The notes beneath the pieces were generated by a model. The model was not told where the DNA came from and made no database searches. It saw only the letters and a program-made list of their open reading frames with translations. DNA of 64,000 nucleotides from Candidatus Altimarinota bacterium (lineage in GTDB: Bacteria > Patescibacteriota > Gracilibacteria > BD1-5 > UBA2023): positions 1-64,000 of the forward strand of contig JABFSX010000003.1 of the NCBI GenBank assembly GCA_013268835.1. Reading direction: 5' to 3'. A program made the position numbers and the translations under genes. Numbering within the stretch: the stretch's first letter is position 1; each line of letters opens with the position of its first letter. This document shows, one piece after another, positions 14,925 through 31,568 of the stretch.

Positions 14925-15575
14925 ATGTCACTAGAGAAATCCCCAAAATGGGTTCAAGAACAAGTACGTACTTGACTCGATATCGATAAAAAACTTGATA
15001 TTAAAAAAGCAATTGATGAACTCTCAATTGAAGCACTTATCACATTTTTTGAAAAAAATGCAACTGCAAAATTCTCAAAAGAGGATCCTGAAACACCAAA
15101 AAATAGTGCTGCTCATATTATTGCATACCAAAAAGCTCTCAATCTACTTGGGATTTCGGTAGGTACTGATGGAATATATGGAACAAAAACCCGAGATGCT
15201 CTTATAAAATTCCAAACAGAACAAAAACTTGCAAAACCGAATGGTATCCCAGGAGAAAAAACAGTAGAAAAACTCATAGAAGCACTCAAATGAAAAATTC
15301 CAAAACCAGCAGAAAAACCTGCTGTAAAAGTTGCTGAAGCTGTTTCAGTAAAAGAAACTCCTGAGCAAAAAATCGACACATTCTTAAGAAGAGAATGATA
15401 CGACAGAGATGAATCTGGAAACTATGTAAATCCAGATAAAGATCTCACTATAACTATACGAGATAAAGATGTTGATTATAATAGAACTTTTGGTAGAAGA
15501 CTCCGTATGTGAGAACTCAATATTACTGAAAGGCGAATTTTAGCAGAAGTCTCAGAAATTCTGAAAAGTAAATAA
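14925..15575 (+). CDS. Peptidoglycan-binding domain protein
   Basis: A 216-residue protein with several TGA glycines. Residues about 65-120 form a PG_binding_1 domain: YQKALNLLGISVGTDGIYG, then TRDALIKFQTEQKL and GEKTVEKLIEAL, the three-helix repeat found in cell-wall enzymes. No signal peptide or catalytic domain is visible. The N-terminal 60 residues and the C-terminal tail (after a Pro/Lys-rich linker near 125-145) are unassigned. The next gene, a FimV-like membrane protein, begins 20 bases later, so the two may form an envelope-associated operon. The PG-binding unit resembles those in the protein at 28652-29896. Confidence 0.75.
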
Positions 15576-15595
15576 TTATTGTTTAATATAAATAT

Positions 15596-17101
15596 ATGTC
15601 ATCAAAATCCTTTTCACTCTGAGCTTTGGCGCTTACTGCAGTGCTCAATACCACTCCTACTCTCGCTCAACAGAGCAGTGTAGGAATGACTCAAGATCAA
15701 ATACATGACCGTGTATTGGAATTATGCAAGACTCCAAATTTCGGAAAAAATATTGTTAATTGAACCTGAGAAATCTGTGATGAATACTCTACCGATGGTG
15801 GGAAAACTTGGCTCAAAGTAGGAGGATGAGCAAGTATACTTGCCCTAAGCCTTGTGGCGCTTGTTCAGATAAGAAAAAGAAAAATTGAAAAAGAGAAGAT
15901 TGCTGATGCTGAATTGGGGGATAGTGAATTTTTATGAGTTCAATTTGAAGAAAATCCAGAGATAGATTGAGATGGAGAGACTCTACCGCCAGATGATGAA
16001 GAAATTAAAAATGAATCTAATACAATAGATCTTGTTGCCGAAGCCGATGTATATGCCGCCTATAAACGTTATGAACAAGCTATCGAATTGCTCCAAAAAG
16101 AGATGAGGGAAAATCCAGAGAATACAAATGCATATCTCAAATTAGCAGAAGTATATACTCTTCTGAAAGAAGATGCTGCCATAAATTGACTCTCAAGGGA
16201 AATACTTTCAAAATTTGAATCATCTCTTTCAGAATCTGAACTCAAAAAGCTAATAGAAACCGCTGATACTGGAAATATACCTAAAGATGAAGTGATAATA
16301 GAGGAATGGCGTACAGATCTACTACAGGAAGGATTTGAACTTAATGCTGCTTGGGGTGAAGATTTTCGAGATACTGAGAAATTTATGAAGATAGTTGAAT
16401 TTATGTATAAACGAGGATCAAAAAAACATTTCAATGGGTTCTATGAAACGACCCAAAAAATGGAAAAAGCTGGTTTTTTCAAATTATCTGAGTTAGAATT
16501 ATCACAAATTAAAGCATGGTGACATGAGCTAGATCCAGAAAATCCAATATATACAGAACTTAGTACCCCAACAGAAAAGGTTATTCTTATAGAAGAAGCT
16601 CCTGCGGTACAAGAAAGTATAGATCTTGGATCTGATCCAATTGTTCCAGAAATAACAGAACCAACTACAGAGATAGCTCCTCCCGTTGAAGATATAGTAA
16701 TAGCTCATGAAGAGTTCAATCCTAATGCTATAATTCAATCAGAAAATATATTTCCAGTTCAACCAACAGAATCTAGTGATATATTGAAAAAACCAAAAAT
16801 AATGCCAGGTATCGATCCACCACTTATTAGGCAACTTGAAAGACGTGGATTTGAGGTGATAAGAAGTGAAGAGTTATGAGAAATACAAGTTAAGATAATA
16901 AGAGAATGAAGTGAACTAAATGTCTTAAATGAAAAAGGAGAATCAGTAAAACAATATGTTCATAATGAAACTTATACTATTTCCGATCCAGTAATAAATG
17001 CATATTTATCATATGCTCCATGAAAAAACCGCATACGCTTAGTATTAAAAAATTGAAAAGAGCAATATATTGAAATAATTGGTAATGTGATAATCAAATA
17101 A
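15596..17101 (+). CDS. FimV-like TPR membrane protein
   Basis: A 501-residue protein. An N-terminal signal-like segment (about residues 4-22, ending LAQQ) and a transmembrane segment near residue 80 (GASILALSLVALVQI) precede a basic stretch and an acidic cytoplasmic part. DLVAEADVYAAYKRYEQAIEL, continuing into a TPR-like helix pair, closely resembles the C-terminal FimV motif of type IV pilus and peptidoglycan-associated proteins. The remaining region is Pro/Glu-rich and ends in an unassigned beta-rich domain. Many TGA glycines. Role inferred: envelope scaffold, perhaps linked to pili. A terminator follows immediately. Confidence 0.6.
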
Positions 17102-17239: not shown

Positions 17240-18631
17240 ATGCTCACTATGGATTATATTATTTTCTGGAATTTTATCCTCGCTACTGCACTCGGTGCTC
17301 TTATAGGAACCGAACGAGAGATGCCACGAACAGGAGTGAAAATGGGTTGAGCTGCTGGATTTGGTGGGATCAGATCATATGCTCTTCTTTCTCTTCTTGG
17401 TGCCATTGCCACCTGGATGGATATCTCTATGAATACGAATATCTGGAAAATAAGTGGACTTATTATATCAGGACTTTTTGTGGCTATTGCCTATACCTAC
17501 TCCTCTTTTTCAAAAGATCGAATGGGTGTCACCAGTGAATACTCTGCACTTCTTACCTATTTTATAGGAGTTATTGCTATGAGTGGTCAAGCAACTATTG
17601 CTGTGATGCTCGCTATCCTCATACTCATTGTCCTCTCTTCCAAAGACTATCTTAGTAAACTCAAGGAACGATTCTCTCGTGAGGAACTTGGGGATTCGCT
17701 GAAATTTGCTGTTATTGCACTTGTGATCCTCCCCCTTCTTCCGGATGCCAAGTTCTCAATTATGGATATGGCTCACTGGTTTTATCATCAACCGCTCGGT
17801 TGGACCAATACTATTGTAACAGCTCCGTTTTTTAATCCATATGGAATCTGGTTCTTCGTAGTGATTATGGCGGGTGTAGAATATGCCGGCTTTATCCTCT
17901 CTCGTGTGATCGGTTCCAAATGAGGAATTATGGCTTCTGGTGCGATCGGTGGACTCATCTCATCAACCGCCACCACAGTTGCAATGACCAAAAAAAGTAC
18001 TGAACACCCTGAAAATCGAAATTCATATATTGTGGGTACACTTGTTGCCTCTTGTATTATGTTTATTCGTGTGATTGTGGTTGCGGGGATTATCTATCCA
18101 ACCATCCTCACAAGTATATGGATTCCTGCTACGGTGATGTTTGTTGGGCTTTCTGGTACGGCACTCTACTATTATCTACAATCTCGAAAAGAGCCAACCG
18201 CTCCAGTAGATGAAAATGAAGAAAAAGAATATGAAAGCCCATTTCAACTCTGGCCCGCTATACAGTTTGCGGGACTCATCGTGATTATCAAGTTCCTCTC
18301 TATTGTTGGTAAAGCCATGGAAAATATCATCCCACCCGAGGTGTCAAATTATGGACTTGCTATCATTTCGGGGCTTGCCGATGTAGACGCTATCAATATG
18401 ACCTATTCAGGAAATGCCAAGGCAGGACTCATCTCTACAGTTATCGCTGCAACAACCATCCTCATCGCAGTAATGTCGAACAATGTTGTAAAAGCTTCTA
18501 TTGCATACCGATTTGGAGAAAAAGAGTACGGAAAACGAGTATTTATGGGATTCTGAATCTCAATACTTTTAGGAATTATTGCAATTATTGCTCTGAATTT
18601 TGTGAGTATTGTGGAGGCATTTGGAAAATAA
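17240..18631 (+). CDS. MgtC/SapB - DUF4010 family membrane protein
   Basis: A 463-residue polytopic membrane protein. The N-terminus (ATALGALIGTERE, then GIRSYALLSLLGA) matches the MgtC/SapB first domain. The remainder has about ten hydrophobic segments and DUF4010-like motifs (GGLISSTATTVAM and SGLADVDAINMTYS). Family members are linked to magnesium or other ion homeostasis, but the substrate is not established from sequence. Four TGA glycines, one in the conserved loop before GIRSY. Two in-frame ATGs (17240, 17249) are possible starts. Stands alone between terminators. Confidence 0.75.
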
Positions 18632-19190: not shown

Positions 19191-19230
19191 AAAACAACAA
19201 TCCCTCCAAATTTGGAGGGATTGTTGTTTT
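19191..19230. terminator. 40-nt perfect palindromic bidirectional terminator
   Basis: The 20 bases starting AAAACAACAATCCC are followed directly by their exact reverse complement. The hairpin ends in a T-run in both directions, and lies between the convergent ssb and the gene ending at 19240. Confidence 0.9.
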
Positions 19231-19239
19231 TTAGAGTAT

Positions 19240-21357
19240 CTATAATGTAGCTCAAGCTCCTTTTATGAGTGCTTCGGCTCATTCTTTTTCTGTTAACTTT
19301 GTTCCACTTGGAAGAGTATATTTTCCATCGGATCCTGGTGAACCAAATTTCGAAAAAATATCAGAAACAATCATAACTAAAGATGCCATAGCTATTCCTT
19401 GTCAGACCCATGCTATTCTCTTTCAATAGGTTAGATATGCTGCCAATACTGCTCAAACTGCGGCAATATGATACCATTTCATTGCACCATATATTTCTCA
19501 TGCAATTCATTTCATTTTTTCAAAAGTAGCAGAAGCAGCAACAGAAATTAAGCTTCCTATTACTCTTTTTATTCCAGGAGGAATAATCGGGCTATCTTTT
19601 TCGGAAATTGCTCGTAACATTGGTTGATCAAAATATTCTCATCTAAATTCAGTATTTCATAAAAAATGCCAAGTTCTCTGATAGCAATAAAGTTGTTCAG
19701 GTTCACTCATGGTAGAAAAATCTGTTTTTCAGCCAAGTGTAATATACATCTTCGTTATATCTTCAAGTGTCGGAGATATTTTTCCAAATTCTGCCTCATA
19801 CTTGGACTTTTCTCCAAGTGAACAATTTGCAGTAAGAACTGGAATGATATCTTTTCCAAATTTTAATATTTCTTTTAATTTTCCTTTTCCTTTATCATCA
19901 ATTGATTGAAGCTTATCGATAGAATCAGTTGTATTAAATTTTCAAATTGGCATTTTTGCTGCTTCTATGAATACAAATGACATGAGTTTTGGATCAGTGA
20001 TTCACAATTTTTCAGCCTTTATTTTTAATCATTCTTCATTTATTTTTCAATTATTAAATGAAATATTCATTTTATCTCCTATTTTTCCCATAAATCCTGT
20101 AATATCCTGTATTCCATTGATTTCAATGTCATGAATATTCTCAGCAATATCAAAAGTATCTTTTATTCCTGCTATAATATCTCTAATTGTCATATTCTGG
20201 ATAGTCTCTCCATATCGTTTTTTTAGGAATTTTGATCCATCCCCACTAACGAATAATGCTAATACAGCAAATGCTGATCAGGCATTTGTAATACCCTTAA
20301 ATTCTGATTCTTCTAAGAGTCATTTTAAATCTTTCCCCTTATATTTTTCAAAAAGAACACTGGCTCATGAAAATGTCATTGATTGAAATGGTGCATATAG
20401 AAATGGTGCATCAAGATCGGATACCTTTAATCATTTTTGAGTATCCTCAAGAGATCAATAATACATACGAACAAATCCTTTGTATCATGATTTATAAGAT
20501 ATATCCTCTTTTAAGTTTTCAATCCTTCATCCTGTCTGTGGTTCTACTGGATTTTGAGATACAGCTGGACCCTTGAGTCCTGCGAGCTTGAGTTCTTCTG
20601 GAGTCCAGTCATCCGTCATTCCAAGAAAGTCAAATCGATTCAAAAATGAAAAAATCATCAATCTAATAGTTGCACCAAATCCTATACTTTCTCATTTTGC
20701 CTTCTTTGCCATATCTTCAATCATGGTTTTCTTATCGAAACCAAGCTGTTCGGCAATCCATCACTTAATTCATTTTTTTAAATCTTTTGTTCATTCTGAT
20801 GCGAGATCTTTTGCTTCAGCACTTGATATCAGTGAGAGACCTCCTGCAGTAGTAGTTGCTGCAAGGACAGCTCGTGGTATGGCTTTCTCTGCGGCTATAG
20901 CGACCTCTGCTTGTTTTTTATCTTCTTCATTACCTGTTATATCTGCTTTGAAACGTGAAAGATCAGCAGTAGTCTTTGCAAGAATAATATTGATTGCTTT
21001 ATTTTTCTCTTCGGGCTTGATTTCTTTAAGATGATCCGTAAGAGCCTTTAGGGTAGATTCAACAGTTACAAGTACTTGAGTATTAGCCTTTAATTCAGCA
21101 TCATTATGGATAGTTGCGAGCATTGCCTTAGCTTGATCAAAAGCATTTTTTGCATTAATAAAATTAGCATCAGCATCCCTAAGTGACTGAGCTCAAATTT
21201 TTCCAAATGGATTTTGCTGGATAGCTTCTTGTAGGGTAGCTCGATCAAATTCGTTCCAACGCTGCTCGAGTGTTGCTCGAAAATTCTTCAGAAGATTATC
21301 TGGAGCTTTCGCTGGAGTTCAAGACAGTGTATCTCGTTGGATTTCTGGATTAGCCAT
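19240..21357 (-). CDS. Large membrane-associated protein of unknown function (705 aa)
   Basis: I do not recognise this family. A soluble helical N-terminus (residues 1-170, rich in Lys, Glu and Ala, coiled-coil-like) is followed by a small hydrophobic segment near residue 185 (ATTTAGGLSLISS). After a long middle region there is a clear transmembrane helix about 50 residues from the end (IAWVGQGIAMASLVMIVSDI). Numerous TGA glycines. It is the last gene of a four-gene minus-strand run (28525 to 19240) of similarly built proteins behind a cell-wall 3D-domain gene, suggesting one envelope complex. A terminator palindrome follows. Confidence 0.7.
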
Positions 21358-21458
21358 AAATATGCATTAATTGTATATAATAATAAGTATTTTACTGTAT
21401 TACACAAGAGTAAAATACATCATATTAATACTAGCATATCGGCATTAAAAAGGCAAAA

Positions 21459-21486
21459 GAAAATCCCTCAAGTTTGAGGGATTTTC
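21459..21486 (-). terminator. Terminator between large-protein genes
   Basis: A 13-bp perfect stem (GAAAATCCCTCAA and complement) with a 2-nt loop, 24 bases downstream of the minus-strand stop at 21510. It separates this gene from the promoterless-looking gap before the gene starting at 21357. Confidence 0.85.
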
Positions 21487-21509
21487 AGTATACTTAGTGA
21501 ATATATTTT

Positions 21510-23765
21510 TTATTTCACTTTTGCTTTTATCCATTCATTCTCTTCCCAATATCCTCCATTTTCATTTCATGGAATCTGAGACAATCGTTTCATAGAATCT
21601 CTTCGAACAACATGATCACTCATAATATCCAGAAGATTAGCAAAAACTTTTCCTATTTCAACTTGTTTTTTTTCTGGTCACCAAGGCAATGTGTTTTTAT
21701 TTTTTAAAAGAGAATTAAATAATTTATGTTCTCAGGATTGCTTGATATATACCCGATCACTAAATGGATTTGAATCAACCTCATCGGCCTCAAATATTCT
21801 CTCACCATTTTGCATACGAGTAAAAATTGTTTGAAAATATTTCTTCTCATTTGGATTCTGAATATATTGTTCAAATTCAGCGATTTTTCATTCAATACTC
21901 ATCTTTTCTCCTTCTTGACGAAAACGCTCATTGGAAAAAGTCATTTCATCCATATATAGAGATGAAAGATAGTTATCTACAACATCAGTAATAAATTGTG
22001 GACTTTTTTCTTTTTTCCATTTTCACATCTCCGAAATAACTGCTACAGCTATCTGTCATCGTTCTAATTGATAAAAATTGGCTCAAATACCACTTAGTAC
22101 ATGTGTTTCAAGAATTTGACTAAACAATTCAAAGCTTTTTTCTTTGGAATCATCTGCAAAAAATGGTGGTTGATTTTTCTGATACTGTTCTATAAGAATA
22201 AAAATTGCCCTTAATAGTTCATTTCTATATCGTTGTACCTCAATATTCCACTGATTCTTGTTTCTATTATTCACACTTCATCCCATCCATTCTGATGGAT
22301 CAACGCCAAGATGGACTCGAGACTGAATAAAAGTAATATCTGGAGTTACTCCAGTACCTCCGGTGAGTGGCATTTTTCTCCCTAACTTACCAAACCATTC
22401 AGTCCAATTAAATCTTGGAATTGCTGCATTAATACTGGATTCTCGAGATTTATTAATTTGATCCAATGCCTCTGGTGCTCCAAGATTGAGTCCATGTAAG
22501 ATGACGCTTTTTTTGTAGTCATACATATCCGTTCCATTGAAGTGTTCCCACTTTATCTGAGATCCACCAAGATGATCAAATCCAATATGTCCGAGTCAAG
22601 CAGCAGCTCATCAAATGACAAGAGGAGCAAGTACTTTCCCAACTATTCCACCGATTTTTCAAACCTTATTTCCCACTTTTACTCCCACAGTAAAAAGTCA
22701 CCATTCTGCCATTCAAGCAGCAAGATTTGCACTAGTTTGTCGCTTTGTAAAAGTCGAAAAGAAAACAGGCCACATAATAGCATGCATTACATTCTGAGAA
22801 AGCATTCCCATGAGTGATTGGCGAGTATAGTATTTCCAGTTAATATTTTTTCCAGCTGCTTGCAGTGCCTTACGAGTTTCGATAAGTTTTGCTTCTGTGG
22901 CAGTAGTAAGACCGAATCGGTCTCGAAGTTCTTGTAAGCTCAACTTTTGTATAAGTTCACTTGCGGCTATAAATACCTGTCTATCAATATGAGTAAATGT
23001 TTTTTTAATAGGATCAAACGCATACCCAAGATTTTCTAAAATCTTAAGAGTACGTCATTTTAGTATATTTCTGTCTCATTCTATCTGATTTTTACTAAAC
23101 AACTTTTTCATCATCTCATCTCATTCAAGATTGATACGCTCAAAGGTTCCTTCTGGAGTACGAAGTAATATTTCACTAATTCGTTGAAATCAATTATATA
23201 TTCTTGATTGTCCATTTAATCATGCCGCAACTGTATTGATTGCTGAGTTGGCCCCAAGAGCAATAGCCCCCGTTACTGCTGCATATTTGACGATAACAGA
23301 ACCACCAAACATTGATTCTGTCATAACTGACTCTCGAAGAACCTCTGTTTCACGGCGTGTTTTTTCTTCTATTTTCTGTATTTCTGGTGTTCATTTTAGG
23401 ACATTATCCCAAAGAGTTATAGCGTTTGTTGAATATAAGATGCTTCCATCTTTACTATACAATTGCAGTATACCATGCTCAAAAGTTAGAGAAAAAACGG
23501 AATCAAATTTTCCAATTTTTGATTCTATATAATTAGTAAATATATCCAATTTTTTTTCTATATGCTCAGCACTAAATGGTGTTCATGATCTTTTTTTATA
23601 TTCAGTCTCATAAAACTTCTTTACAAGACCCTTAAAAAAAAGTTTTTTTACAATAGGATCTTCTATGGTGCCAATAGCATCAATAGGACCATTTGTTCGT
23701 AAGAGAAAATTTCTTCCCTGAATTACATCTCAAGTATGTGTATTTGTATTAGGGGTTTCCGACAT
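21510..23765 (-). CDS. Large membrane protein of unknown function (751 aa)
   Basis: No family recognised. Begins MSETPNTNTHTGDVIQG without a signal peptide. Hydrophobic segments occur near residues 150-175 (VIVKYAAVTGAIALGANSA), 320-340 (LMGMLSQNVMHAIMWPVFF) and 355-405 (LFTVGVKVGNKVG, VLAPLVIGGAAAGLG). The C-terminal 300 residues are hydrophilic and Trp/Gln-rich. Uses many TGA glycines, including a pair of adjacent Gly codons after SEWMG. Starts 17 bases after the stop of the 977-residue gene, so it is very likely cotranscribed with it. Probably an envelope protein; molecular role unknown. Confidence 0.72.
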
Positions 23766-23782
23766 AATAATTATGTATTATC

Positions 23783-26716
23783 TTATCGTTTGGTGAGTTT
23801 TTCTAGTAACTTGGCAGCTTCAGCTGGTTTACTTGGATCAAGAGTTCATTTTGGAAGACCAGCAGAATCTTTTACTACTAACTTTCCATCACGAATTTCT
23901 GTTGTATATCCTGCTGGAAGTCGAGCCTTCATTGCATCAAATGATCCTTGTGTATCAGTAGCTTTTGCTACAATAGCATCAAGTACTTTTTGTCACTCTG
24001 CATCAAGGTTTCCATCAGATTTTGGTTTAAGTTTTCTGGCATCATCCTCAGAAACTCCTGTACGAACTACTTTTTTTATTCGACTTTCTTCTAGTGCAGG
24101 CACTTTTGCACTTTTCTCTCATTTTGCTGCCAATTTCGCTTTCATTTCAGCAAGTTTAGCTTTTTCTGCATCAAGCTCAGCTTGAGTTTTTAGAGTAAAC
24201 GTTTTCTTTCCTGTTGCATCTACACTCTTAGGATTAGTCAAGACATCTCTCATGATTGGATCAGCTTTAACAACTGCCTTTTTTCCATCTTTAGCAACTT
24301 CCATTCTCGTTTGATTTTCTTTAGCTTTTGTCAATACAGACTCCGCTGTTCTCAATTCTGCGGCCTTTGTTTCAACTATAGCCTTTAATGCACGACCATC
24401 TGTATTGGGTTTTGGTGGAGTACTTCCTGTATCCCAAAGCCCTTCACTGGTCATATCTGCAATTTTTTCATTCAAAACAGCTTTTGCAGACTTCTCTGCA
24501 GTACTGGCTGCCTTAAGTTCTCATTCTGCCATATCAACAACCGTAAGATCACTATTTACTCCTCCAAAAATAGACTCAGGAGTAAGTTTATCCACATCCA
24601 TTCTATTAGGTTCTGCATTATAGGTTGTGACTCTTGTACTAAGATCCCTTATATGATCCTTTGCTAAAGATGTAAAATTAGCATCCGTGATTGATTGAGA
24701 AAAAGCACTAAACTGTATAGATTTACTTCCAAGGGTTGATTCAAGTGTATTAATTGATCGAAGGATTTTCTCTCGAGCAACAGTCACTTTACCTTCTGCT
24801 GTATTCTTTTTTATTTCTTCATCGGCATAAGCTGTTTTTGCCTTACCATATTCATTGTACAGTTCAAGATTTGATTGAGCTTTTTCTAATGCAAGCTTAG
24901 CTTCTTCCTTACTTCGTTCTGCCACATCTACAGCTTCTTTTGATTGAGTATGGAGATTTCGTCTGTTTTCAAGTTCACTATTAAGTGCGGTATACTTTCC
25001 TAAGTCACGTTTTGCAATATCGAGTTGTTCTTCTAGTGTTGCAAGTCCTGCATCCGTACTTGGAATTCATTGAGCCTTTCGTTGTTTAATTTCTTCCTCA
25101 AGAGTATGAATTTCTTTAATAAGACTAGCCTCCTTGTAAAGAGATTCTGCTGCAACCTGGGCATCAACATGTTGCATTACCTCTTTTATCATTTTTGCTT
25201 CTGCACGAGGCACCATGATTTTATCGCCATTTGGGAATTCGATTTCTACTCGATCAATTTTGGATGATAAACTTCCTACTACATTTGATACTTTATCTGT
25301 ATATGCTCAGCTATTTGTACGATCTGAGAGTCGAACATACTTGTTCTGAAAAACAAGATTAGAAACTGCTCATTTTTCAAAAAGAAATCGATACATAGTA
25401 TTTTTCATACGTCACCATACCCCAAGAGGCATATCGAGACCAATTTGTCTCAGTTTCATCTCTAGTTCCCATCCATCCATAAGAGATACATCTACCGGAA
25501 GATGTTTGCTAATAGTGGTATTTAGAGAAGACATTTCCTGACGAGCCTGACGAATCTGAGAAGATGAAGCAACTCATCCTGAATCAAGATCCTTAATGAA
25601 GGCATCATAGTTAGAATAGGTACTACCATATTTTTCAAAAAGAAACTCCTTCACTACCTCTTTTGCTCATTCTGTTTGAACTTTTTTGAGTTCTTTTTGA
25701 GAGTCACTGAGTTCTTTGTCTCAGGCTCATTCTGCTTTTTTAGCAAGAAGTCGATCTTTTACTGATTGTGCGAGAGATTTTCCACTTCACCCGACCCCCT
25801 TTGCTGCTCTTTCGATTTTTTCATACATTTCTTCCGTGAGGGCAACTGCTGGTTTTCATACAAATGGCACCTTTCCAATTCACCACTTCATAATTGGTAC
25901 TGTTACTTTTGCTGTAATATAGAGTCCAATTGGGAGTCCGATAGCAAGACCGAGCCATCCATCCTCATCAAGCAGTCACTCATTGATTTCTTGAAGTTTT
26001 GCAAGAATCTCTTGATCTTTTTCAGCTGCAGAATTAAATGGTTTTTTCTGGAAACCACGTTGAAATTGAAGTTCTTTTGATCCGTTTCCATATTGAGACA
26101 CAAGACTATCTATAAGTTCTGATGCTCCCGTATTACTATAATTTACAACATTATCACCCGTTCCTTTATCTGCATCTATGGTAAATCCAGGAGTACCTAT
26201 CTGAGCAAGTCAATTGGTAAGAACACGTCCATAGTGCTCATATTCATCCCGAAAACTTACCACAGAACCAAGAAGGGCATCGTCAAAATGACGGATATAA
26301 TTGGTACGTACTCGCGTTTGCAATAGAGTAATATTTTTCTTGATTGTTTCGCCCATTTTTTGAGCAGCCTCATTTCCTGTAAGCTTTTCCAAGTCATTCT
26401 CTGGGTTTTGTACTTGCTTGAGAGGGCCTCTTGTATACCCCGAAGACGGCACTACAGATGCTACTGTTGCCACTTGAGAAACTCCAGGATTTTTTGCTGC
26501 TTCTTCAAGAAGTGATTGGAGTCAAGTCCGCGTTGAATCTGTAATTTTTATCTGTGAAATTTCTTTTGCAAGAGTGTCACGAGATACTTGTGATGCAACT
26601 CTCAATTTTTTTATATCAAGGGTATTATTACCACTAGCAAGGTCTGCGATTTCATTATGACCAGCATTGCTGAGTTGTAGTATTTCTGAGTCAGATAATT
26701 TAACTTCTGGGTTCAT
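23783..26716 (-). CDS. Very large coiled-coil membrane protein of unknown function (977 aa)
   Basis: No family recognised. Residues 1-260 are soluble and helical. One transmembrane segment near residue 255-275 (LGLAIGLPIGLYITAKVTV) is followed by Lys/Ala-rich helices (ERAAKGVGGSGKSLAQSVKD). From about residue 480 to 900 the protein is a long coiled coil rich in Ala, Glu and Lys (EEAKLALEKAQSNLELYNEY). The end is a small repeated-looking domain (DGKLVVKDSAGLPKGTLD). Several TGA glycines. The architecture resembles a membrane-anchored tether or spacer. It lies 18 bases from the upstream 596-residue gene, in the same transcription unit. Confidence 0.72.
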
Positions 26717-26734
26717 ACTAATTAAAGGTTAGAA

Positions 26735-28525
26735 TTATTTATATATATTTGGGAGAATATCCTGAATTGATTTACTCTTTTCATTTATCGAAAGAGCATA
26801 TTTTTTTTCGAAAGCACTTCGTTCTTTATCACCTTCTTGAGATCATTCTGGTGCCGTGTCTAATAGATATGATCCTGTTAAATATTGACGGAGAATTTTC
26901 TTGAGAATTACTGGATCCATATTTCCAGGAATACGAATAGTAAGATCCCAATTTTTTTCATTTTGAAAAATAGATGCCTTCGCATTTTGCGAATACAGAA
27001 TATTATCAAGTTTTTGGTTTTGAAAACCAGATGACTGAAGAAACTTGATATAGTCGTCAAGAGATGCATTTTGATTTGGAACAGCCTTTATATGAGACTG
27101 AATCATTGTGCCAAATTTTGATGACTCTTTCATTACTTCTTTTTGTGCTGATTGTTGTGCTGGAGTAAGAACAGGTTCTGTTTCATTAGCCTTTACTGGC
27201 TTCGCTGCTTCCGCTACGGCTGCAGTTCCACTTGCTACAGCTGCAGCTCATCCATCAATCGCCTCTTCGGCAGCCTCTCCTGCTGCTTTAAATCATTTAC
27301 CAAGTCCATCTTTTATCTGTCTTCCGAGACCTGTTTCAGTTCCGATTTCATTGAGAGCTTTGATTCCAATCATTCCGACAAGCAACCCTCCAATAGTCTT
27401 CATAAATCCAAATTGCCAAATAGATCCAATAAGAAGTGTAAGAGAAGCCCACGGATACTTGGCAATAGCTACTGTTGGATTATCCATAAATGTCTCAAGG
27501 GTGAGCTCTTGAGCTTTTCATTCTTGCTTCATTGCAGATTTTTCTCTTTTTAGTCATCCTGCACTTGCTGTGGCAACAGCTTTTTCTGCTGCTACATATA
27601 CCGTACTACTACGAAGTTCGATATCTTGTTTTTTGAGTTCTACTTTTCGCTGTACATCTGGAACAGCATTATATCCAGCATATCCACCTGATATATAGGA
27701 TATAAGAAAGGCTTTTTCTTCAGCTGTTGCGGTAGGATGATTTTGAATTAATTTGATATTTTCATTAGGATTCTTTGATAATGAAATCCCGAGTGTTTCA
27801 GTAAGAAACCCTACATATCCAGTCAAAGATGCTTTTGTAAGATCTGCTGATTGAGTTTCCACATAAGAACCAAATCTCCCTGTTCCAGTCATAATAGCGC
27901 TCTGCATTTCTGCAAGTTGCAATTTTCCGGCACTGAGGTGATTATTGAGGGTAGCCTCAAGTGCTACGGCATTTTCTTTATTTGTTGGATTTTCCAAAAC
28001 TATCTTTCCATCCTGGATGGTCATTGTATATTTTTGTGAAGCAAGACGAGACCAAGCAAGATTAATAACGATAGCTCGACTCTCTGGAGATTTTTCTGTA
28101 TCAAGTGACTTGAGAAGTTTTGAGAGTGATTCAACTGTCATGGGAGAATTATTTTCTTGCTCAAGTTTTGCCTTAAGTTCTTTGAGATTCTTTGATACTA
28201 CCGGAGATTCGACTCCTGCCACGGGAGCTACCGCAGGAAGTACAGGGCCAGTCTCACTTCGAAGGGTGCTCAGTTTTGCTCCTGGTGTTTTTGCATAATA
28301 TTCAGACAAAAGCTGTTCAAATTCAGAAATCTCCGTTGGAAGATATTTTCATTTATTTTCTTCTACAACTTTTTTTGCATCAGCAATAAGTTGATTGAAT
28401 TCTTCTTGTGTTCGAGGCAAATTTGTAGGCCACTCTGATGTACGCTGATTTGGTTTTCCGAGTCTATCACGTAAAACCCAGTTTGCGTTCTCAAGATCAG
28501 CCTTATTTGGTCAAAAAAATGACAT
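26735..28525 (-). CDS. Membrane-associated protein of unknown function (596 aa)
   Basis: No family recognised. A soluble N-terminal region of about 350 residues, with Pro/Val-rich linker VLPAVAPVAGVESPVV near residue 98, precedes a transmembrane hairpin near 365-405 (YPWASLTLLIGSIWQFGFM, TIGGLLVGMIGIKAL). An Ala/Glu-rich segment and a C-terminal domain of about 130 residues follow (DDYIKFLQSSGFQNQKLDN). Lacks a signal peptide. First of the four large genes in transcription order. The preceding gene (3D domain, 28652-29896) is separated by a terminator, so the promoter should lie in 28526-28606. Confidence 0.72.
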
Positions 28526-28606
28526 AAAAATAACTATTAAAAGTAAATATACTACCACATTATCATAATATATTTACTTTTGCAAGTTTTGTTGTAAATA
28601 ATATTT

Positions 28607-28637
28607 AAAAAATCCCACATTTTCGGTGGGATTTTTT
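28607..28637 (-). terminator. Terminator after the 3D-domain gene
   Basis: AAAAAATCCCAC pairs with GTGGGATTTTTT around a 7-nt loop, 14 bases beyond the minus-strand stop at 28652. Confidence 0.85.
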
Positions 28638-28651
28638 GTATCGAGGATTTT

Positions 28652-29896
28652 TTAGAGGGTTCGAGCAATATCATCAATCATAGCAATTCGCGTATTTTCA
28701 TCGAGCTTTCCAGTAGCTTTGATATTTTTTGATTTCTGATACTTACGAATAGCAACGAGAGTACGAGGAGTCATCTGTCCATCAGGATTTCCAACATAAT
28801 GTTTTCCATCAGAAAGGAATGATTGAAGTAGTTTGATTCCATCTCCTTTTTCCTTGAGTTGTGGCTGACCAAATGCTGTCACGGTTGTTTCAGCTTGTTT
28901 ATACTGTTTTTCCCAAGCAGCATGATCCGTTAAGAGGAGATTTCGGGCTTGTTCTGCGGCACTGAGTTCAGCATTACGCTTCGCAAGAAGTGTAGCAAGT
29001 GTTGCTCGGGTTTTTGGTCCATAGACACCAGCTCCTTCATCATCTTTTGATACAATTACCTTTTGTTCGAGCTGAAACTCTGTAATCATTGCTTTGGTAT
29101 CATTTCCTGATACTGGATATCCAAGATCAGAAAATGCAGAGAGCACATCACTCGAAAGTCCTCCAATCGAAGGAGTTCCCCCTGGACGGGGATACTGAGC
29201 CAGATTCACTGATCCATTGAGAATTCCTTCTATATTGATAGGATCTCTTGTATCATTGGTTACGATAGTTCCCTTTACTTCACGACGTCCCCATGCTCGA
29301 GCACGGCGGAGTCACTCATCACCATATCCAACCCAGAGGTCAATTCGATCATAGGCTTGTCCACGTACGAGTGCCTCTACGATAGCTCCCCCACGATCTT
29401 CAACTCTACCGAGTCAGAGTCATTCAAAAAAAATCTGCGTTCCAAAAGCATATGTTTTTGGAGCCGCAATCATACCTGTAAATACAGGGGTGCCACTTGC
29501 ACCATTTGTACCTCTACCATTGAGACGGATATCCGCCTCGTAGCTTCACCGATAATACTCAGCTTGTCATAGAAGTGGCGAATAATACGCCGTGACGATA
29601 AAAGTCTGTTGTTGAGAAGGTTCAGGAATCTCACTGGCGAATGATGTCTCACTCGGAGATATCATCAATGTCGTAAAACAAATTGCAAGATATGTGAGAG
29701 GTTTTCGATATGCATATTTCTCGATACGATCGAATGCTCGATGGAGTGATTGAGAAAAAAAGAATCGAAGGGAAAAAGAGAATTCTACTGTTTCTGAGGA
29801 AAAGGACGTCTTACCGGAGTTACCAAGAAGAGAAAATATATCACTTCGGATAGTTGAGGCAAGATTTGAACTCGTACTGTGGAAAGAAGAATACAT
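28652..29896 (-). CDS. Cell-wall protein with 3D domain and two peptidoglycan-binding units
   Basis: A 414-residue protein. A membrane segment near residue 70-90 (PLTYLAICFTTLMIS) follows a basic N-terminus. Then comes a 3D (Asp-Asp-Asp, MltA C-terminal/RpfB-type) domain with FIVTAYYSPL, YAFGTQIFFEGLGLG, VEDRGGAIV and RIDLWVG. Two PG_binding_1-like units follow (GAGVYGPKTRATLATLL; NPDGQMTPRTLVAIRKYQ). This layout is typical of lytic-transglycosylase-like cell-wall remodelling enzymes or their non-catalytic relatives; whether it cleaves glycan is not certain. Several TGA glycines, one inside VEDRGG. It precedes the cluster of four large membrane proteins. Confidence 0.8.
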
Positions 29897-30327
29897 GGAG
29901 TATTTTTAGGAATAAAACTCGACTGGAATACAGAGAATTATTAATATCTCAGTTATTCGAGGAGTATTGCGGGAGCCGTTATGCTATAAGCATTCGAGAG
30001 CAATGAAATCAATTTTTTCAAAGGATATCATTACGTCACGAGGAACATTATATCATATGTCATTATCATTTGTCGAGCAAATTCTATTGACGAGTATATA
30101 TTATTTGTTCATAAAAACAAAAAAACTGAGAATTCTATATATATTTATAGGATATATTTTTGTAGTAAAAACCTTATTGAAAGAGGATCTACTAGTAAAT
30201 ATTTCCTAAGAAAATTTTCATACAGAGGCGATATCCTATCTAAAAAACAAAAAAAGACAAAATAAAATTGCAAAATCAATCCGATTTCATATACTTGGCT
30301 TGCTTTTTCAACAAAAGCTCAATATAT
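29897..30327 (+). other. Intergenic region upstream of tRNA-His, possible small ORF
   Basis: Besides the tRNA promoter (30268-30295) it contains a short hydrophobic reading frame (ATG at 30003, stop at 30209, 68 residues, with a likely membrane segment LRILYIFIGYIFVVKTLL). It has no recognisable relative or clear translation signal. I do not call it a gene. Confidence 0.4.
30268..30295 (+). promoter_or_regulatory. Promoter of tRNA-His
   Basis: TTGCAA (30268-30273), 16-base spacer, TATACT (30290-30295), about 33 bases before the mature tRNA. Same pattern as other promoters in the window. Confidence 0.6.
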
Positions 30328-30405
30328 GGCGGCCATAGCTCAGTTGGTTAGAGCGTCGGACTGTGAATCCGAAGGTCGTGGGTTCGAACCCCATTGGCCG
30401 CCCCA
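30328..30405 (+). tRNA. tRNA-His (GTG)
   Basis: A full cloverleaf with anticodon GTG in the loop CTGTGAA. The diagnostic extra G-1 is encoded at 30328 and pairs with C73; the CCA end is encoded (30403-30405). rpsA follows 38 bases later on the same strand and may be cotranscribed. Confidence 0.96.
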
Positions 30406-30443
30406 TTCCTTTTTTATCCCTATTTTTTAACCTTTTATTTCTT

Positions 30444-31568
30444 ATGTCAGATTTCGCAAAGGCACTCGCAAATGCGACTCCAATCCAATCCTATAAAGTA
30501 GGTGAGGTTGTTGGTGGTACCGTAGTGGTATCAAACCAAAAAATGATCCTCGTAGATCTTGAGGGTCAATTTACTGGTATTATTACTGGTAATCATATGA
30601 GTTCTTCAACTGAAGATACTTCTACTATAGTTCCAGGAAGCCGTATTGAGTCAATCATCATTGGTGATGATGCTCATTCTGGTCTTATCCACCTTTCTCT
30701 CCGCAAGGCGAGCCAGGCAAAACTTATCGAAAAACTCCACTCTAATTTTGATACGAAAGAGATCATCACTGTTATCCCTAATGAGGCTAACAAAGGGGGT
30801 CTTCTTATTGATCTTGATGGAATCAAAGGATTTATCCCAGTTTCTCAACTCACTCCAGCTCACTACCCACGTGTTGAGAATGCCAATCCAGAAAAGATTC
30901 TTGAACAACTCAACAAGCTTATCGGAAAACCATTCCAAGTTCGTGTACTCAATGTTGATCCATCTGGAAAGAAGATCATCTTCTCTGAGAAGGCAGCAAT
31001 CGAAGAGCAACGAGTTCAATCACTCCAGACTATCAAGGTTGGTGATGTGGTAGAAGGTGTTGTTTCTGGTATTCTTACTTATGGACTCTTCGTATCATTC
31101 CAAGGAATCGAAGGTCTCGTACACGTATCAGAAATCGATTGGGGACATGTGAACAATCCACACAAGCACGCAAAACTCGGTGACAAAGTGACTATCCAAA
31201 TTATCGGTATCGAAGGAGAGAAGATCTCTCTCTCTATCAAGAGACTCAAGGCAAATCCTTGGCAAGTTCTCTCTGATAAATACCAAGTTGGTGATATCGT
31301 AGAGGCTCCAGTTCTCCGTCTTTCTCAATTCGGTATATTCCTCGAGCTTGATGGTGGAGTTTCAGGACTCATCCATCTCTCTGAGATTACTGCTGAGATG
31401 ATGGAAGGTATCGAAGAAAAAGTTCACGCAGGTGAAATGATGAAGGCTCGAATCATAACTTTCGATTCTGTAGGAAAACGTATCGGACTCTCTCTCAAGG
31501 CACTTGATCCAAACTATGTACCAAGTGAGACTCCTATTGATATCCCTGCTGAAGCTCTCGAAGCATAA
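30444..31568 (+). CDS. rpsA: 30S ribosomal protein S1
   Basis: A 374-residue protein with four S1 RNA-binding motifs. The clearest are VGDVVEGVVSGILTYGLFVS with GLVHVSEIDWGHV, and VGDIVEAPVLRLSQFGIFLE with GLIHLSEI; each ends in a KRIGLSLKAL-type strand. S1 helps the 30S subunit bind mRNA, which matters where Shine-Dalgarno sequences are weak, as here. Not a single TGA glycine occurs despite many glycines (GGN codons only). The start at 30444 begins the first domain; in-frame upstream codons run into the tRNA. A terminator follows. Confidence 0.93.
   Translation: MSDFAKALANATPIQSYKVGEVVGGTVVVSNQKMILVDLEGQFTGIITGNHMSSSTEDTSTIVPGSRIESIIIGDDAHSGLIHLSLRKASQAKLIEKLHSNFDTKEIITVIPNEANKGGLLIDLDGIKGFIPVSQLTPAHYPRVENANPEKILEQLNKLIGKPFQVRVLNVDPSGKKIIFSEKAAIEEQRVQSLQTIKVGDVVEGVVSGILTYGLFVSFQGIEGLVHVSEIDWGHVNNPHKHAKLGDKVTIQIIGIEGEKISLSIKRLKANPWQVLSDKYQVGDIVEAPVLRLSQFGIFLELDGGVSGLIHLSEITAEMMEGIEEKVHAGEMMKARIITFDSVGKRIGLSLKALDPNYVPSETPIDIPAEALEA

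What the first reader, a model, noticed from the sequence alone, without database searches (positions are those of the whole stretch)
19240..29896. Four-gene run of giant unknown membrane proteins behind a cell-wall 3D-domain protein
The minus-strand genes of 596, 977, 751 and 705 residues share the same style: no classical signal peptide, large soluble helical domains, one to three short hydrophobic segments, Ala/Lys/Glu coiled coils and Gly-rich linkers. No known family is recognised. The gene ahead of them encodes a 3D domain plus two peptidoglycan-binding units. About 3,000 residues of unassigned protein in a streamlined genome suggests a dedicated envelope or contact apparatus, perhaps for attachment to a host cell.
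Basis: inference. Interest (0 to 1): 0.75.

Follow-up and report, generated by a model that had tools for sequence, protein, structure and literature searches.

The report
Fast-evolving giant envelope-protein island
A tiny, probably host-dependent bacterium carries a run of large proteins that match no known family; its relatives keep similar runs, often together with cell-wall-binding or wall-cutting parts, which suggests a rapidly changing cell-surface machine that nobody has described.

Summary
Under code 25 (TGA=Gly) four minus-strand genes of 596, 977, 751 and 705 codons (A, B, C, D) lie behind a 3D/peptidoglycan-binding gene, and none matches Pfam, PHROGs, NCBIfam or PDB. A and D are the recognisable core. 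A-B-D order recurs in six relatives of the same order, with A and B fused in two of them. D was found in 18 of 77 genomes of the order and in no sampled genome outside it. The middle position is variable (at least three unrelated subfamilies); P0003 and P0004 are orphans. In another family of the order, 13 of 19 genomes sampled at queA hold 2-5 giant signal-peptide-less genes between ftsX/tuf and queA. Wall-related domains recur in or beside these islands: PG_binding_1, SH3_3, a weak LysM, glucosaminidase. The 3D gene itself is class-wide, has its own terminator, and pairs with rpsA in genomes that lack the module there, so its adjacency is probably incidental. I read the run as an order-specific, fast-evolving, wall-linked membrane apparatus. 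Host contact or delivery is the likeliest use but is not shown. Main rivals: substrates of the order-wide type IV secretion machine; an internal envelope scaffold. AlphaFold failed (pLDDT 38-39).

The parts
28652..29896 (-). P0001, 414 aa: N-terminal extension, signal-like segment, 3D domain (about 95-215), PG_binding_1 (351-406); class-wide wall protein, probably a neighbour rather than part of the module
   Evidence: own terminator
28607..28637 (-). intrinsic-terminator-like hairpin separating the 3D gene from gene A
   Evidence: 12-pair stem, T run
26735..28525 (-). Gene A (P0002, 596 aa): N-terminal MSFFGPNK motif, alpha-beta-beta-alpha domain about 147-233, central hydrophobic segment about 373-391, conserved C-terminal domain
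23783..26716 (-). Gene B (P0003, 977 aa): hydrophobic segment 255-273, long Ala/Lys/Glu coiled-coil-rich part; orphan in the variable position
21510..23765 (-). Gene C (P0004, 751 aa): hydrophobic segments about 152-170 and 371-389 (Gly-rich); orphan in the variable position
21459..21486 (-). intrinsic-terminator-like hairpin between C and D; an AT-rich promoter-like stretch follows (read by eye)
19240..21357 (-). Gene D (P0005, 705 aa): helical N-terminal part, conserved 'LGFDKK..GF...FLNR..FLGMTDDW' element, 'YITLGGKTDFSTMS' motif, C-terminal hydrophobic segment 651-669; most widely detected family of the module
19191..19230 (-). hairpin terminator after D, shared with the converging ssb gene
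   Evidence: sequence
14925..15575 (+). P0006, 216 aa, PG_binding_1 domain without signal peptide; possible wall partner of the module (by analogy with G322), not shown
15596..17101 (+). P0007, 501 aa, signal-like N-terminus, TM 72-90, TPR; same AT-rich, TGA-rich composition as C and D; relation unproven

Best explanation
The run is a local version of an order-specific, fast-evolving 'giant protein island' that builds a wall-linked membrane apparatus. Shown: gene families A and D, their order, a variable middle gene, restriction to one order in the samples, repeated association with wall-binding or wall-cutting domains, absence of signal peptides, few hydrophobic segments. Inferred: the proteins insert in the cytoplasmic membrane by internal or C-terminal hydrophobic helices; A and D are the constant core; the middle protein (with a Gly-rich hairpin resembling the pre-toxin PT-TG domain in some genomes) is the variable, partner-facing or membrane-inserting part; wall-binding domains and a wall hydrolase position the complex in the peptidoglycan. 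The most likely use is contact with, or delivery into, the host or prey cell, which would explain divergence within one genus. That last step is the least certain.
For: Conserved order: A-B-D in G459 (A 25%, D 33% identical), G391, G422, G308 (A/B fused), G322, G351. A-domain in 18 of 77 genomes at E<=0.01 (15 strongly), one per genome; D in 18 of 77, 0 of 286 other genomes in a phylum sample. Island position: 13 of 19 genomes of the second family sampled at queA have 2-5 giant genes there; A-position proteins share an N-terminal M-S-[FL]-[FL]-G-x-N-K motif across families, with one other match among 790 proteins (post hoc). Wall theme: 26 island giants scanned at E<=0.01 gave six proteins with hits, five of them wall-binding (PG_binding_1 in G375 8.5e-5, G249 1.1e-3, G210 3.1e-3; SH3_3 in G231 1e-3, G447 1.9e-3); about 0.26 proteins with chance hits expected. 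Glucosaminidase PF01832 (6e-33 to 6e-36) without signal peptide directly ahead of A in G218, G329, G481. Flanking genes stay much more similar in the same genus pair: MgtC-like 61%, 3D 67%.
Against: None of the four window proteins has a wall-binding domain. No signal peptides, so it is unexplained how large domains would reach the wall. No adhesin domain. AlphaFold models failed (mean pLDDT 39.2 and 37.6). A and D are on different contigs in G456. Several same-genus genomes (G441, G274, G467) gave no A or D match, so the module is not universal or diverges beyond detection. The chance estimate for wall domains ignores that coiled-coil proteins give biased scores.
Confidence: 0.45

Rival explanations
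1. The island encodes substrates (effectors or translocators) of the patescibacterial type IV secretion machine: signal-peptide-less, variable, membrane-active proteins and wall hydrolases sent into the host.
For: A VirB4-like ATPase (PF19044 3e-23) is found in 74/77 order genomes, nearly always once, own copy at contig C4:81000-82937 beside a VirD4-like ATPase. No signal peptides, even in the glucosaminidase. PT-TG-like region in B of G459 (4.6e-4) and G218 (1.1e-4). The T4SS of Patescibacteria is essential in one strain and proposed to export proteins (PMC10633639, PMC12102498).
Against: PT-TG scores are just below Pfam's cut-off; no toxin domain except one weak Ntox33 hit (0.0045); no immunity genes seen; B tails are not charged like classic T4SS signals; module not linked to virB4.
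Confidence: 0.2
2. An internal membrane scaffold for the cell's own wall growth or division, working with FtsX-controlled hydrolases.
For: In the second family the island lies beside an FtsX-like gene (4 TM; named by eye) and carries wall-binding domains or a glucosaminidase. With no signal peptide the large domains would by default stay inside.
Against: Very fast divergence and domain turnover are unusual for division proteins; in the window's family the module sits elsewhere (secY/ssb/rpsA neighbourhood).
Confidence: 0.2
3. Domesticated phage ejection or tape-measure-like proteins.
For: Long helical proteins with few hydrophobic segments and a lysin nearby resemble such cassettes in outline (inference).
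Against: No PHROG match, no relative among viral contigs for P0002, P0005 or a second D (limited sensitivity), housekeeping neighbours, no other phage genes.
Confidence: 0.06
4. Unrelated fast-evolving genes that happen to lie together.
For: P0003 and P0004 are orphans; gaps with terminators split the run.
Against: Repeated A-B-D order in several genera and repeated islands at the queA locus.
Confidence: 0.05

Closest known systems
Polymorphic toxins with pre-toxin TG domain (PF14449)
   Same: B of G459 and G218 have a PT-TG-like Gly-rich region; middle position is polymorphic; no signal peptide
   Different: scores below the curated cut-off; no C-terminal toxin domain or immunity gene; window proteins do not match
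Giant surface proteins of Vampirococcus lugosii (PMC8080830)
   Same: large membrane-associated proteins in a related host-dependent lineage
   Different: those are 1392-4163 aa with adhesion domains (PKD, integrin, fibronectin); ours are helical, without signal peptide or adhesin domain
Patescibacterial type IV secretion system (PMC12102498)
   Same: contact-dependent envelope machine; wall hydrolase (VirB1) partners; the order carries VirB4/VirD4-like ATPases
   Different: A-D match no VirB family; only a weak TrbC/VirB2 hit (0.0097) in one A homologue; not linked to virB4
3D-domain wall enzymes (PF06725 / MltA-like)
   Same: P0001
   Different: class-wide and independent of the giant genes

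Membership tests
PT-TG polymorphic toxin (PF14449) | PT-TG domain above curated cut-off | tested here: not met
   20.5 and 22.5 bits against 23.5 in P0010 and G218 B; none in P0002-P0005
PT-TG polymorphic toxin (PF14449) | C-terminal toxin domain and immunity gene | tested here: not met
   no toxin family above cut-off in 26 island giants; one weak Ntox33; immunity families were not searched for separately, no small partner gene noted next to B
Type IV secretion component | VirB2/3/4/6/8 or coupling-protein homology | tested here: not met
   no hit for P0002-P0005; TrbC 0.0097 in P0009, below cut-off
Type IV secretion substrate | transfer through the T4SS | not testable with these tools
   machine present order-wide; no assay
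Surface adhesin / giant surface protein | signal peptide and adhesion repeats | tested here: not met
   no N-terminal hydrophobic signal, no adhesin family
Phage ejection / tape-measure proteins | PHROG similarity or phage context | tested here: not met
3D-domain wall protein (P0001 only) | 3D domain with conserved Asp residues plus wall-binding unit | tested here: met
   PG_binding_1 9e-12; 3D below Pfam cut-off but residues present and 246/288 class relatives

The most novel reading that the evidence does not exclude
A new kind of wall-spanning contact machine, peculiar to code-25 Gracilibacteria, with a constant A/D core, interchangeable middle proteins and interchangeable wall-binding or wall-cutting parts, kept in a genomic island whose proteins diversify so fast that synteny outlasts sequence similarity.
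Probability: 0.3. Interest if true: 0.85.

Novelty: categorically new. Interest (0 to 1): 0.6.

Why it matters
Host-dependent bacteria of this order have about 1-1.5 Mb genomes yet spend up to 15 kb on these islands. How Gracilibacteria hold or feed on other cells is unknown. An order-specific, single-copy, wall-linked and rapidly diversifying gene set is a concrete candidate that can be tested by proteomics and deep-alignment structure prediction.

Tried and rejected
Relatives from the fetch from genomes were not handed to the predictor because its stated rule does not list them. Direct BLAST of P0003 or P0004 against P0010 or P0012 found nothing. A shared small domain between A and P0006 was suspected by eye and rejected. 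A charged C-terminal secretion tail in B was tested and not found; D tails are more positive than background (p=0.0006), which fits a membrane-anchored tail as well. Viral-contig scans with P0005, a second D and P0002 were empty; the profile could not be used there. Early all-ORF gene calling gave wrong-strand calls in code-25 loci and was replaced by a composition-scored caller. The iterative A profile drifted (it pulled in a 143-aa protein), so A membership rests on pairwise hits, the 90-aa domain profile and hhalign.

Full report
WHAT IS THERE. The window is part of contig C4 of a 1.36 Mb genome of a code-25 bacterium; the same-genus contig JACMPX010000035.1 is titled Candidatus Gracilibacteria. 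Under table 11 none is open. I call them 3D, A (P0002), B (P0003), C (P0004), D (P0005). Pfam, PHROGs and NCBIfam give nothing for A-D. PDB gives nothing for P0005 or for the D and A family profiles.

TRANSCRIPTION UNITS. A strong hairpin terminator lies between 3D and A (28637-28607), another between C and D (21486-21459), another after D; A-B-C have gaps of 18 and 17 nt. So the run is 3D | A-B-C | D.

THE 3D GENE IS A NEIGHBOUR, NOT A MARKER. A search of 288 class genomes found the 3D protein in 246, including standard-code genomes. In G441, G391 and G243 it lies next to rpsA without the giant genes beside it. In G391 the A-B-D module is on another contig, without a 3D gene beside it. Adjacency in the window, G459 and G308 may be inherited position. 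A functional link cannot be excluded.

A AND D ARE REAL FAMILIES, B AND C ARE ORPHANS. In the same-genus genome G459 the order is 3D - A (637 aa) - B (828 aa) - D (714 aa) - ssb - MgtC. Identity is 67% for 3D, 61% for MgtC, 33% for D and 25% for A. The middle gene is not alignable to P0003 or P0004. G391, G422, G308, G322 and G351 have the same order, with A and the middle gene fused in G308 and G422. A D profile built stepwise found D in 10 of 288 class genomes, all in the window's order, then in 18 of 77 order genomes, and only in the window's own genome among 287 of a phylum sample. A 90-residue domain of A is single-copy in 18 of 77, 15 of them strongly. P0003 and P0004 match nothing in the material searched beyond themselves. 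The middle position holds at least three subfamilies: PT-TG-like (G459, G391, G322, G218, G262), a second (G379, G326, G329, G422, G351, G456), a third (G308, G336, G296, G469). A fifth family, E, accompanies D in part of the second family.

THE ISLAND OUTLASTS SEQUENCE SIMILARITY. In several genomes of the second family (f98) the module lies between ftsX/tuf and queA (gene names of neighbours by eye, queA confirmed by PF02547). I located queA in the order and fetched that side in 19 f98 genomes, nearly all negative for D. In 13 of 19 the gap holds 2-5 giant genes (about 600-1520 aa) without signal peptides, invisible to the A/B/D/E profiles; five have queA elsewhere; one contig ends early. 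Remote D matches appear in two of them (G210, probability 93.5; G249, 79). The A-position proteins of G403, G469, G479, G225, G302, G447 and G435 start like P0002 (MSFFGPNK, MGILGVNK, MTLLGVNK, MSLFGINK, and so on); the pattern hits one unrelated protein among 790 (noticed after the fact). A second-position family, F, links f98 with G262 of the window's own family.

WALL THEME. In G218, G329 and G481 the gene ahead of A is a glucosaminidase (PF01832, 6e-33 to 6e-36) without signal peptide. Among 26 island giants scanned at E<=0.01 six had hits; five of these are wall-binding domains (PG_binding_1 x3, one just above its cut-off; SH3_3 x2), one a weak Ntox33. About 0.26 such proteins are expected by chance. 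G322 has a weak PG_binding_1 protein ahead of A (0.014) and G329 a weak LysM protein in the run (0.016). The window's own giants have none; P0006 (PG_binding_1, no signal peptide) lies 3.7 kb beyond D.

LOCATION. No A, B, D or E protein has a clear signal-like N-terminus (the exceptions with a hydrophobic stretch near the start, such as G351 A, have uncertain start codons). D usually has one hydrophobic helix near its C-terminus and a positive tail; A has one or two central helices; E one at about 320. With so few and such moderate segments the topology cannot be settled. The wall domains argue for an outer side, the missing signal peptides for an inner side or an unusual export route.

FUNCTION. 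Shown: the anatomy, the families, the association. Inferred: a membrane-anchored, wall-linked complex. Host contact is suggested by lineage biology (host dependence, PMC11452946 and PMC8080830) and by divergence rate, not by a domain. The order-wide T4SS-like ATPases (PMC12102498) offer an export route and make the 'substrate' rival serious. Structure prediction failed for lack of permitted relatives.

VERDICT. Real, conserved in position, lineage-specific and undescribed in the papers I could search. I rate it categorically new at the level of families and gene set, with open function.

Noticed in passing
window 14925-17101: P0006 (PG_binding_1, no signal peptide) and P0007 (TM + TPR) form a two-gene unit with the same low GC (0.34) and high TGA-glycine share (0.33-0.39) as genes C and D, unlike ssb/rpsA (0).
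   Followed up: partly
window 19240-31568: Share of glycine coded by TGA rises from 0 in ssb and rpsA through 0.13 (3D) to 0.42 (D); recoded glycine seems to track fast-evolving genes.
   Followed up: partly
L140 12790-18946 (G000:C4:76790-82946): VirD4-like 984 aa, PP2C-like 402 aa and VirB4-like 648 aa ATPase cluster; the VirB4-like gene is nearly always single-copy and order-wide.
   Followed up: partly
L097 2139-3059, L098 4969-5919, L133 2541-3467: Signal-peptide-less glucosaminidases with an internal hydrophobic segment, directly ahead of gene A.
   Followed up: partly
L059 4994-8392 (G422): A-B fusion contains MORN-like repeats by eye (GNLLTGEFLKNN...).
   Followed up: no
window 17240-18631: MgtC/DUF4010 membrane protein conserved beside ssb in the same genus.
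   Followed up: no
L035 7972-13170 (G441): 1732-aa protein with an N-terminal hydrophobic segment near the 3D gene in a same-genus genome that gave no A or D match.
   Followed up: no
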